A stretch of 64,000 nt of DNA from Jiangella sp. DSM 45060 (lineage in GTDB: Bacteria > Actinomycetota > Actinomycetes > Jiangellales > Jiangellaceae), in contig NZ_LT629771.1 in NCBI RefSeq assembly GCF_900105175.1, positions 6,282,622-6,346,621 of the forward strand, given 5' to 3'. Both the position numbers and the translations under genes were made by a program. The notes beneath the pieces are model-generated. The model had not been told where the DNA came from and searched no databases. It saw only the letters and a program-made list of their open reading frames with translations. Below are positions 10,734-15,193 of the stretch, piece after piece (the stretch's first letter is position 1; the number at the start of each line of letters is the position of its first letter).

Positions 10734-10779
10734 ACACTATCTGGTACTTACACAGATGCAAGTCACCTACATCTAGTGT
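10734..10779 (-). promoter_or_regulatory. Tandem NrdR-like boxes over the nrdA promoter
   Basis: Two 16-bp elements, at 10764-10779 (ACACTAGATGTAGGTG on the minus strand) and 10734-10749 (ending in TAGTGT), resemble the NrdR consensus ACACwATATmTwGTGT. They are 14 bp apart, close to the usual three-helical-turn phasing. A possible promoter (TTGCAT, 16 bp, TAGTGT) lies across them, with its -10 inside the second box, just upstream of the riboswitch. The match is partial, so this is probable rather than certain. Confidence 0.55.
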
Positions 10780-10922
10780 CTCGCCTGCCGGTCGCCCACA
10801 TCGGGACAGATGCCGCGACGACGCTGTCCCGATCCTGCAGCGACATGGCCGAAACTCGCTGTCGCTGCTGCCCGGCGATCCGTCACAATGGGCGCGGTCA
10901 GCACTGTTCGAAGGAGACGCTC

Positions 10923-11888
10923 ATGACGCAGGCCACGGCCCGGCCGGCGATGATCTGGACCGCGCTCGTCGTGGTCTACGTGGTCTGGGGGTCGACATAC
11001 CTCGGCATCCGGGTCGTGGTCGAGGCCGGCATCCCGCCGTTCCTCGGCATGGGCCTGCGCTTCCTGTCCGCCGGGATCCTGATGCTCGGCTACCTGTGGC
11101 TGCGGCACGGCCGGGCCGGGATCCGCATCAGCGGCCGCGAACTGCGCGGAGCCGCCGTCATGGGGCTGCTGCTGCTCGTGCTCGGCAACGCCATGGTGGC
11201 CGTCGCCGAGCAGACGGTCCCCAGCGGCCTGGCCGCGCTCGTCGTCGGGGCGATCTCGCTGTGGTTCGTGCTGCTGCAGGTCGCCGGTGGTCAGCGGCCG
11301 CCCTGGCTCACCTGGGTGGGCGTCCTGGTCGGCCTGGCCGGCGTCGCGGTCATCTGCCTGCCGCGCGGCGGCATCGAGGGCGTCGAGGCGTGGGGCATCG
11401 GCGTCCTGCTGTTCGGCACCATCTCGTGGGCGTTCGGGTCCTACCTCTCCCCCCGGCTGGGGCTGCCGCGCAACGCACTGGTGGCGTCGGGCTACGAGAT
11501 GCTGGCCGGCGGCGTCATGCTGACGATCGTGTCGGCGGCGACCGGAGAGTTCGGCGACCTGCACGCCTCGGCGGTGCCGGCGAAGGGCTGGCTGGCGCTG
11601 GCCTACCTCGTCCTCATGGGGTCGCTGCTCGCGTTCTCGGCCTACGGGTACCTGCTGGCGAACGCACCGCTGTCGCTGATCGGCACCTATGCCTACGTCA
11701 ACCCGGTGGTCGCCGTGATCCTCGGCTGGCTGATCCTCTCCGAGCCGGTGACGTCGATCGTGCTGGTCGGCGGCGCCCTGGTGGTCGGCGGCGTCGTCCT
11801 GGTCGTCAACGGCGAGCGCACGTCGGCCAAGGCGCCGCCCGCCGAGCGCGACCCCGATCTCGCCCCCGACGAGGCGCTGACCCGCTGA
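10923..11888 (+). CDS. EamA/DMT-family permease
   Basis: 321 residues, ten predicted membrane helices in two EamA repeats, beginning with the typical VVVYVVWGSTYLGIRVVVEAGIPPF segment. The drug/metabolite transporter superfamily exports amino acids, nucleosides or other metabolites; the substrate cannot be told here. The ATG at 10923 follows a strong GAAGGAGA site; the upstream extension of the open frame overlaps the nrd control region. It is transcribed divergently from nrdA and ends before a strong terminator. Confidence 0.85.
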   Translation: MTQATARPAMIWTALVVVYVVWGSTYLGIRVVVEAGIPPFLGMGLRFLSAGILMLGYLWLRHGRAGIRISGRELRGAAVMGLLLLVLGNAMVAVAEQTVPSGLAALVVGAISLWFVLLQVAGGQRPPWLTWVGVLVGLAGVAVICLPRGGIEGVEAWGIGVLLFGTISWAFGSYLSPRLGLPRNALVASGYEMLAGGVMLTIVSAATGEFGDLHASAVPAKGWLALAYLVLMGSLLAFSAYGYLLANAPLSLIGTYAYVNPVVAVILGWLILSEPVTSIVLVGGALVVGGVVLVVNGERTSAKAPPAERDPDLAPDEALTR

Positions 11889-11943
11889 CACCGCGGAGCG
11901 GGGCGCGGGCGGACCATGCGGCGAAAACCGCCCCCGGACACGG

Positions 11944-11980
11944 TGAAGGCGTGAGCGACGAGGTGCCGCTCACGCCTTCA
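11944..11980. terminator. Hairpin terminator between the DMT permease and TPR-regulator genes
   Basis: Perfect 14-bp arms (TGAAGGCGTGAGCG at 11944-11957 and its complement at 11967-11980) around a 9-nt loop lie between two convergent genes, so it can serve both. Confidence 0.8.
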
Positions 11981-11997
11981 GGACGTGCGACTGTGCG

Positions 11998-13392
11998 TCA
12001 GGTGCCGGCCAGCTCGCTCACCGCGGTGCCCGACTGCTCGTCCTCGACCAGGCTGGCCCCGGCGTAGGGCACGACCCGCACCGAGCGCAGCGCGCTGTCG
12101 TAGGCGCTCATCGCCTCGTTGACGCGGCCGAGGTCGCGGTAGAGGTCGGCCAGCTCGCGCCAGGCCGCTGCGGCGACCCGGGAGGCGCCCATGGACTCGA
12201 GCATGGACGCCGCCAGCGCGGCCTCGCGGATGCTCTCGTCGAGCTCGCCCTGCGCCCGCAGGATGCGAGCCAGCGTGAGCCGGGCGATGGCACCGCCGAC
12301 CCGCGGCTGGTCGCCGAGCTCGCGCAGCGACGCCTCGACCGACTCGCGGGCTTCGTCGAGCCGAGCCAGCTGCAGCAGCGTCTGCGCCCGGCGGCTGTAG
12401 AAGTTGGCGATGTCGGTGGCGCTGCCGTAGCGCTTGATGTTCTCCTCGACGCCGTCGAGGATCTCGAGCGACCGCTCGGCCTGCGGCTCGCTGCCGTGCA
12501 GCAGCAGGCCGGCGTGCGCCACCCGGAGGCGGGCGAGGTTGCGGACGTCGTCGCCCTCGCCGAACATCGCCAGGGCGCGGTCGACCAGGTTCAGCGCCAG
12601 CGCCAGCTCGCCGCGCGACTCCGCGACCAGCGAGGCGTTCCAGTACGCCGCGCCGCGGGTGTGCGGCGTGCCGATGCGGTCGGCGGCGGACACCAGCTCG
12701 GCCGCCAGCGCCTTGGACCGGACCACGTCGCCGCGGCCGGAGTAGGCGCCGAGGATGGTGCAGCCCAGGCGGATGTACTCGTCGGTGCTCTCGAGCCCGA
12801 GATCGAAGGCCGCGCGCCGGGCCTCTTCGCCGATCTGGATGGCCATGTCGAAGTCGCCGGCGCGGTCGTAGCACCGGGTGAGCGCGATGGCGACGTCGAG
12901 CCAGGACTGGACCGCCGGCGTCTGGCGGGCTTCGTCGGCCAGCTCGCTGAGGATGTCGATGGCGCCCTCGAGGTCGCCCGTGCGCTCGCGTGCCAGCGCC
13001 CGGCCCAGACGGGCGGCGCGGCTCTGCTCGTCGTTCAGACCGGGGTCGCCGACCAGCGTGGTGAACTGCTCGTACGCCTCGTCGGCCCGGCCTTCGCGCA
13101 GCGCCATCTCGGCGCGGCCGAGGGCGAGGCGGGCCTTGGTGCGGACGGAGGCGTCGACGCCGTCGCGCAGGTACTCGACGTCGATGCGCAGCCGCTCGGC
13201 GATGTGGGCGAGCGCGGAGGACGCCGGCTGGCGGCGGCCGCTCTCGACGAGCGAGACGTAACTGGGGGACAGCATGCCCTCGGCGATCTCTGCCTGAGAG
13301 AGGCCGAGCTCCAACCGGCGGGATCGGATACGCTGCCCGACGGGCGTCGGAAGCGGCGCCTCGTCCACTGTTGCTGGCTGGTCTTCTGTCAT
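11998..13392 (-). CDS. XRE-family HTH regulator with C-terminal TPR array (RRNPP-like)
   Basis: 464 residues. An XRE-type HTH at about residues 18-75 (RIRSRRLELGLSQAEIAEG to LVESGRRQPAS) is followed by roughly 370 residues of alpha-helical TPR repeats, with recurring A-x-x-L-x-x-A-L helices. This is the layout of RRNPP receptors, which bind imported short peptides in the TPR concave face. There is no transmembrane segment. The start at 13392 lies within a perfect 12-bp palindrome, and a 40-codon secreted-peptide gene is divergently transcribed 67 bp away. Autoregulation and control of that peptide gene are likely but inferred. It could instead be an actinobacterial orphan regulator without a peptide ligand. 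Confidence 0.8.
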   Translation of the reverse strand: MTEDQPATVDEAPLPTPVGQRIRSRRLELGLSQAEIAEGMLSPSYVSLVESGRRQPASSALAHIAERLRIDVEYLRDGVDASVRTKARLALGRAEMALREGRADEAYEQFTTLVGDPGLNDEQSRAARLGRALARERTGDLEGAIDILSELADEARQTPAVQSWLDVAIALTRCYDRAGDFDMAIQIGEEARRAAFDLGLESTDEYIRLGCTILGAYSGRGDVVRSKALAAELVSAADRIGTPHTRGAAYWNASLVAESRGELALALNLVDRALAMFGEGDDVRNLARLRVAHAGLLLHGSEPQAERSLEILDGVEENIKRYGSATDIANFYSRRAQTLLQLARLDEARESVEASLRELGDQPRVGGAIARLTLARILRAQGELDESIREAALAASMLESMGASRVAAAAWRELADLYRDLGRVNEAMSAYDSALRSVRVVPYAGASLVEDEQSGTAVSELAGT

Positions 13393-13433
13393 GACAGTAT
13401 TGGACTACAGTCAGTCACATTTTGCCAGTCCAA
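13386..13433. promoter_or_regulatory. Divergent operator/promoter region of regulator and peptide gene
   Basis: Two symmetric elements are visible: a perfect palindrome CTGTCATGACAG (13386-13397) over the regulator start codon, and TTGGACT (13400-13406) inverted as AGTCCAA (13427-13433) with a 20-bp spacer. The inner GACTACAGTC is also symmetric. On the minus strand TTGGAC, 18 bp, TGTAGT could be the regulator promoter. The arrangement suits a dimeric HTH protein acting on both genes. Confidence 0.55.
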
Positions 13434-13459
13434 ATGCCGACTTTAGGAGTTCGATCTAG

Positions 13460-13582
13460 ATGGGGCGTGCCAAGCGAGTTCTGGTCGCGGTAGTCGCATC
13501 GTTCGCACTCATGTTCACGGTGTCGTCGCCGGCCGTCGCTGCGCTGGCCCCGGCAGGCAGCCCCGGAGAATTCTGCTGCTGA
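13460..13582 (+). CDS. Small secreted peptide precursor, candidate signal peptide for the TPR regulator
   Basis: A 40-codon gene. It has a basic n-region (GRAKR), a hydrophobic core at residues 7-21, and an AVA cleavage site at 25-27 that would release ALAPAGSPGEFCC, a 13-residue C-terminal peptide with two terminal cysteines. An AGGAG site lies 10 nt before the ATG, and a strong hairpin follows the stop after 17 bp, so it forms a complete transcription unit. It resembles no family I recognise. Its position, divergent from an RRNPP-like receptor, is how pro-peptides of quorum-sensing systems are usually arranged. Expression and processing are inferred; an alternative is a small exported peptide unrelated to the regulator. 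Confidence 0.65.
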   Translation: MGRAKRVLVAVVASFALMFTVSSPAVAALAPAGSPGEFCC

Positions 13583-13599
13583 TGCGGTAGCCACAGACC

Positions 13600-13651
13600 G
13601 CACGGACGGCGTCCGGCGTCTCGCCCCCCGAACGCAGGACGCCGTCCGTGC
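13600..13651. terminator. Strong hairpin terminator after the small peptide gene
   Basis: Perfect 15-bp arms (GCACGGACGGCGTCC at 13600-13614 and its complement at 13637-13651) with a 22-nt loop. It sits between the peptide gene and the convergent aminotransferase gene, and can terminate both. Confidence 0.85.
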
Positions 13652-13693
13652 TTGTTCGCCCTGCAAACAGGGATATGCGTCCTTTGGAAAGCG

Positions 13694-14764
13694 TTAGCCT
13701 GCCCGCCATTCGGCGGCCAGTCGGATCAGCCTGTCATTGGCCTCGCGCTCGGCGATCGTGACCCGGCAGCCGTCGCCGGCGAATGGGCGTACGACCAGCC
13801 CTTCGTCCTCGCAGAAGCGGGCGAAGTCGAGCGTCCGCTCACCCAGCGCCAGCCACACGAAGTTCGCCTCGGTGTGAGGAATCTCCCATCCCTGCGCCGT
13901 CAGCGCGTCGTACACCCGGGTGCGCTCGCCGACCAGCGCCTCGACCCGCTCGAGCAGCTCGGCCTCGCGGGCCAGCGACTCGACGGCGGCCCGCTGGGCG
14001 ATGCCGGACACGCCGAACGGCACCGCGGTCTTGCGCAGCGCGTCGGCGACGTCGTCGTGGGCGATGGCGAACCCGACGCGCAGCCCGGCCAGGCCGTAGG
14101 CCTTCGAGAACGTGCGCAGCACGCACACGTTGCGGTGCTGGCGGTAGAACTCCATGCCGTCGGCGGCGGCGGGGTCGCGGACGAACTCGCGGTACGCCTC
14201 GTCGACCACCACCATGACGTCCTCGGGCACCCGGCGCAGGAACGCGGCCAGCTCGTCGCGCCCGACCACCGGCCCGGTCGGGTTGTTCGGCGTGCACACG
14301 AGCACCAGGCGGGTGCGGTCGGTGATGGCGTCGGCCATGGCGTCGAGGTCGTGCCGCGCGCCCGCGGCCAGCGGCACCTCGATCGCCGTGGCGCCGGAGA
14401 TGCCGACCACGATGGGGTACGCCTCGAACGACCGCCACGCGTAGACCACGTCGTCGCCCTCGGCGGCCGTGGCCTGGATGATCTGCTGCAGCACGCCGAC
14501 GCTGCCGGTGCCGGTGGCGACGTGCTCGGGCGGCACGCCGAAGCGGTCGGCCAGCGCGGCCACCAGCTCGGTGGCGAACAGGTCCGGGTAGCGGTTCAGC
14601 GAGCCGGCCGTGGCCGTGACGGCCTCGAGGACGCCGGGCAGCGGCGGATAGGGATTCTCGTTCGAGGAGATCTTGAACGCCGGCGCCGCGCCCGCGGCCG
14701 GTGCGGCCGGCCGGCCCGGCTTGTAGGACGGCAGACCGTCGAGAGCCTTGCGAATGCGCACCAT
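13694..14764 (-). CDS. Histidinol-phosphate / aromatic aminotransferase
   Basis: 356-residue class I/II PLP aminotransferase of the HisC group. Visible motifs: SSNENPYPP near the N-terminus, TPNNPTG (cofactor binding), [10 protein letters not shown] with the pyridine-binding Asp, [13 protein letters not shown] with the Schiff-base Lys, and a C-terminal [12 protein letters not shown] with the carboxylate-binding Arg. No his genes are adjacent, so this may be the second HisC-like enzyme (aromatic aminotransferase Pat/HisC2) found in many actinobacteria. The two activities cannot be separated by eye. The ATG at 14764 is close to the next, divergent gene. Confidence 0.85.
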
Positions 14765-14818
14765 GTCCGCACGATAGCCGCTCCCGCGGACGGCTCCGGA
14801 TGTGTACGCTCGGCAGCC

Positions 14819-15193
14819 GTGACGTCCTTCATCATCCGCCTGCTCGTCAACGGTTTCGCCCTGTGGGTGGCGACCCGGATCGTCGACGGCGTGACCATCA
14901 GCTCTGACAGCACGTCAAACGAGATCCTGACCTTGCTTGTCGTGGCCCTCATCTTCGGTCTGGTCAACGCGTTCATCAAACCAGTGGTCCAGTTGTTGTC
15001 TCTACCACTGCTGATCTTGACCCTCGGTCTCTTCACGTTGATCGTCAACGCGCTGATGTTCGAGCTGACCTCGTGGATCGCCGACGTCCTCGACGTGCCC
15101 TTCCACGTCGACGACTTCTTCTGGTCGGCCGTGCTCGGCGCGCTGGTGGTCTCGTTCGTCAGCTGGATCCTGAATCTGTTGTTGCCGAACTGA
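14819..15193 (+). CDS. Phage-holin-family / YvlD-type membrane protein
   Basis: 124 residues with four hydrophobic helices, including the family hallmark [27 protein letters not shown] spread over helices two and three, and [15 protein letters not shown] at the C-terminus. Despite the family name, these proteins are common in chromosomes and are not phage lysis genes; one Bacillus homologue is tied to the cell-envelope stress response. The start is GTG at 14819, which gives a hydrophobic N-terminus immediately. Confidence 0.85.

What the first reader, a model, noticed from the sequence alone, without database searches (positions are those of the whole stretch)
11998..13651. RRNPP-like XRE-TPR regulator divergent from a 40-codon secreted peptide gene: candidate peptide quorum-sensing system
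A cytoplasmic HTH-TPR protein, the fold of peptide receptors such as PlcR and PrgX, sits 67 bp from a divergent tiny gene with its own ribosome-binding site and terminator. The gene has a signal peptide and an AVA site that would free the 13-residue ALAPAGSPGEFCC, with two terminal cysteines. I know of no described actinobacterial system with this peptide. The layout is seen directly; the signalling role is inference from the RRNPP family.
Basis: partly seen in the sequence, partly recalled or inferred. Interest (0 to 1): 0.85.

Follow-up and report, generated by a model that had tools for sequence, protein, structure and literature searches.

The report
Actinobacterial peptide-pheromone receptor and gene pair
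A tiny secreted-peptide gene and the regulator gene beside it form a conserved pair in many families of actinobacteria, and they look like a bacterial chemical-language system of a kind described so far mainly in Firmicutes such as bacilli and streptococci.

Summary
In a Jiangella genome a 464-residue XRE-TPR regulator (11998-13392, -) lies 67 bp from a divergent 40-codon gene (13460-13582, +) encoding a signal-like sequence plus ALAPAGSPGEFCC. All 20 Jiangellaceae loci with readable upstream DNA carry the small gene; its frame is under purifying selection. Of 110 related receptors scanned automatically, 62 have an adjacent small signal-peptide gene with a Cys-Cys tail and 11 one with a Trp/Pro tail; 32 have none. 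The gene can be divergent, co-directional or convergent. Distal control DNA (577 kb) held no Cys-Cys case. In one other genus the precursor holds 1-4 copies of GNWPDP[MV] in all 31 loci read. In four close relatives the DNA-binding end is identical, the TPR region diverges and the tail is replaced except for CC. An operator-like motif occurs once per genome, beside the pair, in 10 of 10 Jiangellaceae. Best reading: an intracellular-receptor peptide pheromone system like the RRNPP systems of Firmicutes, widespread in Actinomycetota and not seen in the literature listings searched. Export, maturation, import, binding and output are inferred; no structure could be predicted.

The parts
11998..13392 (-). 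XRE-TPR regulator, 464 aa: HTH at residues 22-75, TPR matches between 94 and 436; proposed cytoplasmic pheromone receptor
   Evidence: profile of 64 relatives matches PlcR (2qfc_A) at 4.7e-17
13460..13582 (+). 40-codon propeptide gene MGRAKRVLVAVVASFALMFTVSSPAVAALAPAGSPGEFCC
   Evidence: conserved in 20 of 20 Jiangellaceae loci; pN/pS 0.34
13460..13540 (+). signal sequence (codons 1-27), cleavage after AVA proposed by eye
   Evidence: sequence inspection; hydrophobicity rule; no dedicated predictor run
13541..13579 (+). tail ALAPAGSPGEFCC, containing the candidate pheromone
   Evidence: tail changes fast among relatives apart from CC
13574..13579 (+). terminal Cys-Cys codons
   Evidence: CC ends 56 of the 62 CC-type peptides; the other 6 have CC within the last 8 residues
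13393..13459 (.). shared 67-bp intergenic region; promoters of both genes inferred
   Evidence: alignment of 20 loci; no sigma-70 consensus found
13400..13417 (+). operator-like motif TTGGACTACAGTCAGTCA (imperfect palindrome GACT-N6-AGTC)
   Evidence: once per genome in 10 of 10 Jiangellaceae genomes at up to 2 mismatches, always beside the receptor; once in the window at up to 3
13445..13449 (+). Shine-Dalgarno AGGAG of the small gene
   Evidence: a GG(A/G)G-type stretch stands there in the aligned relatives
13600..13651 (+). strong hairpin after the small gene, possible two-way terminator, no U tract
   Evidence: z -5.24; not a consensus terminator
13694..14764 (-). convergent neighbour, histidinol-phosphate-transaminase-like aminotransferase; not part of the system
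10776..11888 (+). neighbour on the other side, EamA-family transporter (ORF as listed; the true start may lie further in); not part of the system

Best explanation
The two genes are a peptide-pheromone pair. The small gene makes a propeptide that is exported by its signal sequence and cut outside. A short C-terminal piece (here within SPGEFCC) is taken back in by an oligopeptide permease and binds the TPR domain of the XRE regulator. That changes the regulator's hold on the operator between the two genes, so the pheromone controls its own production. Shown: a real, selected small gene; association with the regulator in many families and in different orientations; a fast-changing tail with a fixed CC or Trp/Pro core; tandem core repeats in some precursors; a frozen DNA-binding end with a diverging TPR region; one strong operator-like site per genome. 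Inferred: export, cleavage, import, binding, the sign of regulation and the final output. The design is that of the RRNPP systems of Firmicutes, found here across Actinomycetota.
For: Small gene in 20 of 20 readable Jiangellaceae loci. 110 receptors scanned within 500 bp: CC 62, Trp/Pro 11 (Trp-Pro adjacent in 7 of the 11), other 5, none 32; the CC gene picked is divergent in 47, convergent downstream in 12, co-directional upstream in 3. Controls: 30 CC hits by the strict rule in 61 kb of near flanks of 69 loci against 0 in 349 kb of distal flanks; in 577 kb of distal flanks 113 signal-like small ORFs, 0 with CC, 3 with WP, 1 with a repeat. One genus: receptor in 81 of 81 genomes searched, and the 29 further loci returned (the best-scoring) all have a precursor with 1-4 GNWPDP[MV] units and variable linkers. 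Some Streptomyces relatives carry repeated DIEWP, IDWP or IGWP units. Four f17 receptors: 0 of the first 85 ungapped columns vary against 88 of the other 344 (Fisher 6e-10); over codons 1-110 pS 0.29 and pN 0.00; tail identity 9-18% beside TPR identity 80-94%. One genome (G157) has three receptors with tails NSQWCC, NDRTWCC and SDPHWCCG. One operator-like site per genome in 10 of 10 and 8 of 8 genomes of two lineages. PlcR is the only chain among the 60 shown that is matched over both HTH and TPR. No neighbour gene family spans the lineages. The host genome has 43 oligopeptide-binding-protein (SBP_bac_5) matches, 42 over the cut-off, a few being pieces of one gene.
Against: No experiment and no structure: the prediction job was interrupted and the tool then switched off. 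32 of 110 receptors had no detected small gene; this fraction is too low, because of 105 places outside the family listed (my count from the listing) I took 69 and left out 36, many of them in clades where the gene is missing. A paralogous f17 clade and a Streptomyces/Micromonosporaceae clade lack it as a whole, and three f17 orthologues (L107, L110, L112) lack it too. Of 29 Streptomyces-genus loci read, 23 show no WP tail. The operator-like motif occurs once per genome, so no regulon or output is visible. The tail's pN/pS in the f17 set is 1.15, high but no proof of positive selection. A CC terminus is not a known feature of RRNPP pheromones (recalled). No family that I recognise as RRNPP-specific was hit in Pfam.
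Confidence: 0.78

Rival explanations
1. The peptide is an effector, not a signal: a secreted antimicrobial or a metal- or redox-active Cys-Cys peptide whose gene is controlled by the neighbouring XRE-TPR regulator, which senses something else.
For: The single operator-like site per genome means the small gene is the only visible target. CC is a plausible metal or redox ligand. CopC- and CopD-like genes follow the receptor in all 4 f17 regions examined (named by eye).
Against: CC tails and Trp/Pro tails occur within one well-supported f17 clade of receptors, and the CopC/CopD-like genes stand beside both kinds. Tandem core repeats with free linkers, and frozen HTH plus diverging TPR plus replaced tail, are what ligand specificity predicts. 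No family of maturation or immunity genes recurs across the 33 regions compared.
Confidence: 0.11
2. The propeptide acts only inside its own cell: the receptor senses unexported or retained propeptide and so reports on Sec export or the cell envelope; there is no communication between cells.
For: All comparative evidence here holds whether or not the peptide returns from outside; signal sequences are better conserved than tails in the f17 set.
Against: Different tails in closely related strains and in one genome with three receptors are expected for private signals between cells and hard to explain for a self-monitor; tandem repeats suggest processing.
Confidence: 0.08
3. Chance: a spurious ORF in GC-rich DNA beside an ordinary XRE regulator.
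For: Short ORFs abound in this DNA (one search lists 73 of at least 30 aa over 10 kb).
Against: Conservation, codon-position selection and the distal controls.
Confidence: 0.01

Closest known systems
RRNPP(A) quorum-sensing systems of Firmicutes, nearest PlcR-PapR, ComR-ComS and Rgg-SHP
   Same: Cytoplasmic HTH-plus-TPR regulator next to a small gene for an exported propeptide; variable C-terminal tail; tandem pheromone repeats, as reported for some Phr propeptides (PMC11343458, passages seen); profile match to PlcR.
   Different: Host is Actinomycetota; tail core is Cys-Cys or Trp/Pro; the receptor is longer (464 aa here, 293 in the PlcR chain) and hits no Pfam family that I recognise as RRNPP-specific.
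NsdA-family TPR regulators of actinomycetes (NCBIfam NF053720)
   Same: TPR regulator; weak similarity, 33.2 bits.
   Different: Below the family cut-off of 75 bits; no peptide partner known to me (recalled).
BldK-imported oligopeptide signal (Bld261) of Streptomyces coelicolor
   Same: An imported extracellular oligopeptide controlling actinomycete behaviour (PMC11303876, passages seen).
   Different: Its gene and intracellular receptor are, as far as I recall, not identified; I have no evidence that it belongs to this family.

Membership tests
RRNPP(A) peptide quorum-sensing systems | N-terminal HTH and C-terminal TPR repeats in one regulator | tested here: met
   HTH_3 at 22-75 (37.6 bits, cut-off 23); TPR_12, TPR_19, TPR_16, TPR_14, TPR_2 and TPR_8 over their cut-offs, other TPR models below theirs
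RRNPP(A) peptide quorum-sensing systems | adjacent small propeptide gene with an export signal | tested here: met
   20 of 20 readable Jiangellaceae loci; CC or Trp/Pro type beside 73 of 110 receptors; signal judged by a hydrophobicity rule only
RRNPP(A) peptide quorum-sensing systems | sequence homology to RRNPP receptors beyond generic HTH and TPR | tested here: inconclusive
   PlcR 4.7e-17 over profile 2-238, 63.4 bits in the best stretch, against about 45 bits for the best HTH-only chains; no model that I recognise as RRNPP-specific among 18 Pfam hits
RRNPP(A) peptide quorum-sensing systems | peptide and receptor diversify together (pherotypes) | tested here: met
   peptide class clusters on the receptor tree, CC 13 changes against 36.3 shuffled, W 6 against 18.5 (shuffles only show clustering)
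RRNPP(A) peptide quorum-sensing systems | RRNPP receptor fold (superhelical TPR with a peptide groove) | not tested
   structure job interrupted, then tool switched off
RRNPP(A) peptide quorum-sensing systems | mature peptide is exported, re-imported and binds the TPR domain | not testable with these tools
   only the presence of SBP_bac_5 proteins in the host genome was checked
NsdA-family TPR regulators | score over the NCBIfam cut-off (75 bits) | tested here: not met
   33.2 bits

The most novel reading that the evidence does not exclude
Actinomycetota have their own phylum-wide peptide language: one ancestral Trp-Pro/Cys-Cys pheromone core (seen together in tails such as APWPHCC, APWPPCC, NWPKCC and DWPGMCC) that has split into Cys-Cys and Trp/Pro dialects, read by XRE-TPR receptors, with tandem-repeat precursors in some lineages, and with the terminal Cys pair possibly a vicinal disulfide that makes the signal redox-dependent (oxidised outside, reduced inside).
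Probability: 0.6. Interest if true: 0.93.

Novelty: new variant of a known kind. Interest (0 to 1): 0.86.

Why it matters
In the passages read here, peptide pheromones with cytoplasmic receptors are treated as a trait of Firmicutes, while signals of Actinomycetota are described as typically small molecules made by enzymes (PMC10075063). A peptide-receptor family present in Jiangella, Kitasatospora, Streptomyces, Nonomuraea, a Nocardioidaceae MAG, Hamadaea and several unnamed families would give antibiotic-producing bacteria a second signalling code that can be read from the genome. It would offer testable candidates where an imported peptide signal is known but its gene and receptor are not (BldK/Bld261; the second half recalled), and synthetic peptides as possible switches for silent gene clusters: one plasmid copy lies beside an NRPS-type gene and one near a BTAD-domain regulator gene.

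Tried and rejected
Metal or redox effector: considered because of CC and the CopC/CopD-like neighbours in f17; set lower because CC and Trp/Pro tails occur within the same receptor clade. Attenuator or riboswitch: no Rfam match at gathering scores in 11000-15000. Mobile or phage origin: one viral contig hit over the HTH only (not examined further), one unannotated phage record at 36% identity over 62% of the query, 16 records of the plasmid collection; I did not test on which kind of replicon the other copies lie. Conserved co-regulated gene: none across families; the widest neighbour family touched 11 of 33 regions at scattered distances. Regulon by operator search: only the own site; half-sites were not searched because they are too short. 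Structure prediction: not obtained. Literature search for repeat and tail strings: 0 papers. My first upstream scan read minus-strand loci in the wrong direction and was replaced. A first Fisher test used a wrong table and a cut chosen after the fact; one search replaces it with a cut at column 85. In the tree (quick method, with long-branch warnings) I set labels by hand: L119 as W although its tail LGPLNNAE has no Trp, because it sits with the W rows; L150 as CC (its CC gene is seen but was not picked); L146, L155 and L157 as none; the 14 rows added were labelled from that output. I kept 8 of 20 Jiangellaceae rows and only rows of at least 330 aa. Of the 44 named loci, 21 went into; 15 Jiangellaceae duplicates, one duplicate of L108 and 7 partial or HTH-only ones were left out.

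Full report
What is there. The window is a Jiangella chromosome (G000:C1:6282622-6346621); the genus is named because same-genus loci share contig lengths with Jiangella records (for example 117633 and 145335). At 11998-13392 (-) lies a 464-aa regulator with an HTH_3 domain at residues 22-75 and TPR repeats behind it. At 13460-13582 (+), 67 bp away, a 40-codon ORF encodes a signal-like sequence followed by ALAPAGSPGEFCC. A strong hairpin follows, without a U tract. Flanking genes are an EamA transporter and a HisC-like aminotransferase.

Is the small gene real? One search covered 60 genomes. Of the 22 members of the family among them (the window's genome included) 21 have a receptor match of 56-100% identity; the 22nd, an 81%-complete genome, has none. 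In 20 of the 21 loci the upstream DNA is readable and all 20 carry a divergent short ORF ending in CC; the last is cut by a contig end. In 8 aligned Jiangella copies pN/pS is 0.34 in frame and 1.55 and 2.09 in the shifted frames. A strict rule finds it as the only small signal-like ORF in the window.

How far does it go? A profile search of 393 genomes of the class found 93 with a match at 1e-20 or better. A scan of a named genome collection gave 44 loci. I scanned 110 receptors (20 Jiangellaceae; 21 of the 44 named loci; 69 of 105 non-family places, the latter counted by hand) for small ORFs with a signal-like start within 500 bp: 62 have a CC tail, 11 a Trp/Pro tail, 5 another tail, 32 none. 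By source: Jiangellaceae 20 CC; named 9 CC and 12 none; unnamed 33 CC, 11 Trp/Pro, 5 other, 20 none. The 36 places left out lie largely in clades where the gene is missing, so the share of 'none' is understated. 56 of the 62 CC peptides end exactly in CC; the residue before is Trp, Tyr, Phe or Met in 34 of 56. In the Trp/Pro group Trp and Pro are adjacent in 7 of 11 and 2-3 residues apart in 4. The CC gene picked is divergent (47), convergent downstream (12) or co-directional upstream (3), so the association and not the layout is conserved. For two Jiangella loci (L004, L010) the scan picked a second CC gene downstream; the divergent one is present too. Control DNA more than 1 kb from the receptors, 577 kb in all and partly from related genomes, had 113 signal-like small ORFs: 0 with CC in the last 6 residues, 3 with WP in the last 16, 1 with a spurious repeat.

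Other classes of the phylum. Of 296 genomes drawn from the phylum 31 have a match at 1e-40, 8 of them from the window's own class. Of 27 loci scanned with a laxer rule, 8 have a flagged CC or WP tail on a 30-40-aa ORF upstream: GFPWPK, ANWPHVP, APWPPCC, AGWPKH, AGWPRH, APWPHCC, PFPGCCG and PTWPHC; the other 19 do not. Tails with both Trp-Pro and Cys-Cys, here and in 8 of the 62 CC peptides (among them six Phytoactinopolyspora-type [DNSQ]WPxMCC tails), join the two types.

Tandem pheromone-like repeats. In one genus of another family (f3) 81 of 81 genomes searched carry a related receptor. L102, L111 and the 29 further loci returned, the best-scoring ones, all have a divergent signal-peptide ORF with 1 to 4 copies of GNWPDP[MV] and changing linkers; the other genomes' small genes were not read. 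Among 199 Streptomyces-genus genomes 36 have a related receptor. L159 has two DIEWP units. Of 29 further loci scanned, 6 show DIEWP, IDWP or IGWP units, repeated in L205, L208, L209 and L217 and single at the end in L232 and L233; the other 23 show none.

Receptor and peptide diversify together. In four f17 receptors none of the first 85 ungapped columns varies and 88 of the other 344 do (Fisher 6e-10; the first change is at column 112). Synonymous change is similar in both parts (pS 0.29 in codons 1-110, 0.33 beyond) while pN is 0.00 and 0.08. Outside the CC, tails are 9-18% identical beside signal sequences of 68-87% and TPR regions of 80-94%; tail pN is 0.61, pN/pS 1.15, which is high but no proof of positive selection. 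Not every set is so extreme: within Phytoactinopolyspora tails are 36-91% identical, and in the Jiangella rows compared 9-73%. CC and Trp/Pro types sit side by side in one f17 clade. On a quick tree of 109 receptors the labels need 13 (CC) and 6 (W) changes against 36.3 and 18.5 for shuffled labels, 0 of 500 as low; this shows clustering only, and some labels were set by hand (see Tried and rejected). One genome holds three receptors with three different tails. This is the pattern of pherotypes.

Operator. The intergenic region is strongly conserved in the family. TTGSACTACAGNNAGTCA at up to 2 mismatches occurs once in each of 10 genomes, each time beside the receptor; the reversed control pattern occurs 2 to 5 times per genome. 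A different conserved motif in the f3 genus also occurs once in each of 8 genomes, control 0. The likely direct target is therefore the pair itself: an autoregulatory loop. What else it controls is not visible; no neighbour family spans the 33 regions compared.

Relation to known systems. A profile of 64 receptors hits PlcR (2qfc_A) at 4.7e-17 over HTH and TPR, the only one of the 60 chains shown (of 177 matched) that is matched over both. No Pfam family that I recognise as RRNPP-specific was hit, and NsdA is below its cut-off. So it works like an RRNPP system, but membership by homology is undecided. Papers: PMC10075063 (passages) places peptide systems in Bacillota and small molecules in Actinomycetota; PMC9765709 (term search only, no occurrence of the terms asked); PMC12700828 (passages) and PMC11343458 (passages) treat Bacillota; PMC11303876 (passages) describes BldK and the Bld261 peptide. 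The nine literature searches listed no paper that, by its title or the start of its abstract, reports such a system in Actinomycetota. Three listings were capped (25 of 87, 25 of 167 and 25 of 61 papers), and the library holds open-licence papers only, so absence from print is not shown.

Plasmid collection. 16 records match at 87-91% coverage. I read 7 of them: Nonomuraea gerenzanensis (an 11.85-Mb record, so probably the chromosome) has a divergent tail TGDAGCC, and Streptomyces sp. ADI95-16 an annotated hypothetical protein ending TKDIPLCC downstream of the receptor; the other 5 show no clear peptide.

Against. At least 32 of 110 receptors lack a detected peptide gene; some form clades of their own, two sit at contig ends (L049, L103) and three f17 orthologues look like losses (L107, L110, L112). 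Signal sequences were judged by a hydrophobicity rule. No structure, binding or expression evidence exists here. The role of the Cys pair is unknown.

Noticed in passing
L004, L008, L009, L010 (downstream of the receptor): Four Jiangella loci have a second CC signal-peptide gene convergent with the receptor (tails GGSDFCC, GGSDFCC, GGSDYCC, GGSLYCC), so one receptor is flanked by two peptide genes.
   Followed up: partly
L157, L288, L294, L295 (upstream, divergent): Streptomyces relatives carry a divergent small signal-peptide ORF with a shared AAL-x-x-A-A-x-x-G-P-like stretch and neither CC nor Trp-Pro; possibly a third dialect.
   Followed up: no
L249, L250, L251, L252: In f17 the gene after the receptor looks CopC-like and the next CopD-like (by eye), beside both CC and Trp/Pro types.
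   Followed up: no
L145, L149, L151: A conserved 52-aa membrane-type small protein lies about 650-670 bp upstream of f17 paralogous receptors that lack a signal-peptide gene.
   Followed up: no
L264 (NZ_CP108601.1) and L263 (NZ_CP033582.1): Plasmid copies of the receptor lie beside an amino acid adenylation (NRPS-type) gene (L264) and near a BTAD-domain regulator gene (L263).
   Followed up: no
L049 and L103: A MAG labelled Spirochaetaceae carries a receptor identical (branch length 0) to that of an actinomycete genome; the label is probably wrong.
   Followed up: no
L266 (NZ_LT559118.1): The 11.85-Mb Nonomuraea gerenzanensis record in the plasmid collection is called a plasmid but is probably the chromosome.
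   Followed up: no
L269 (MT836207.1): An unverified, unannotated phage record from human faeces encodes a partial receptor relative (36% identity over 62% of the query) near its end; no signal-peptide ORF was found beside it.
   Followed up: partly
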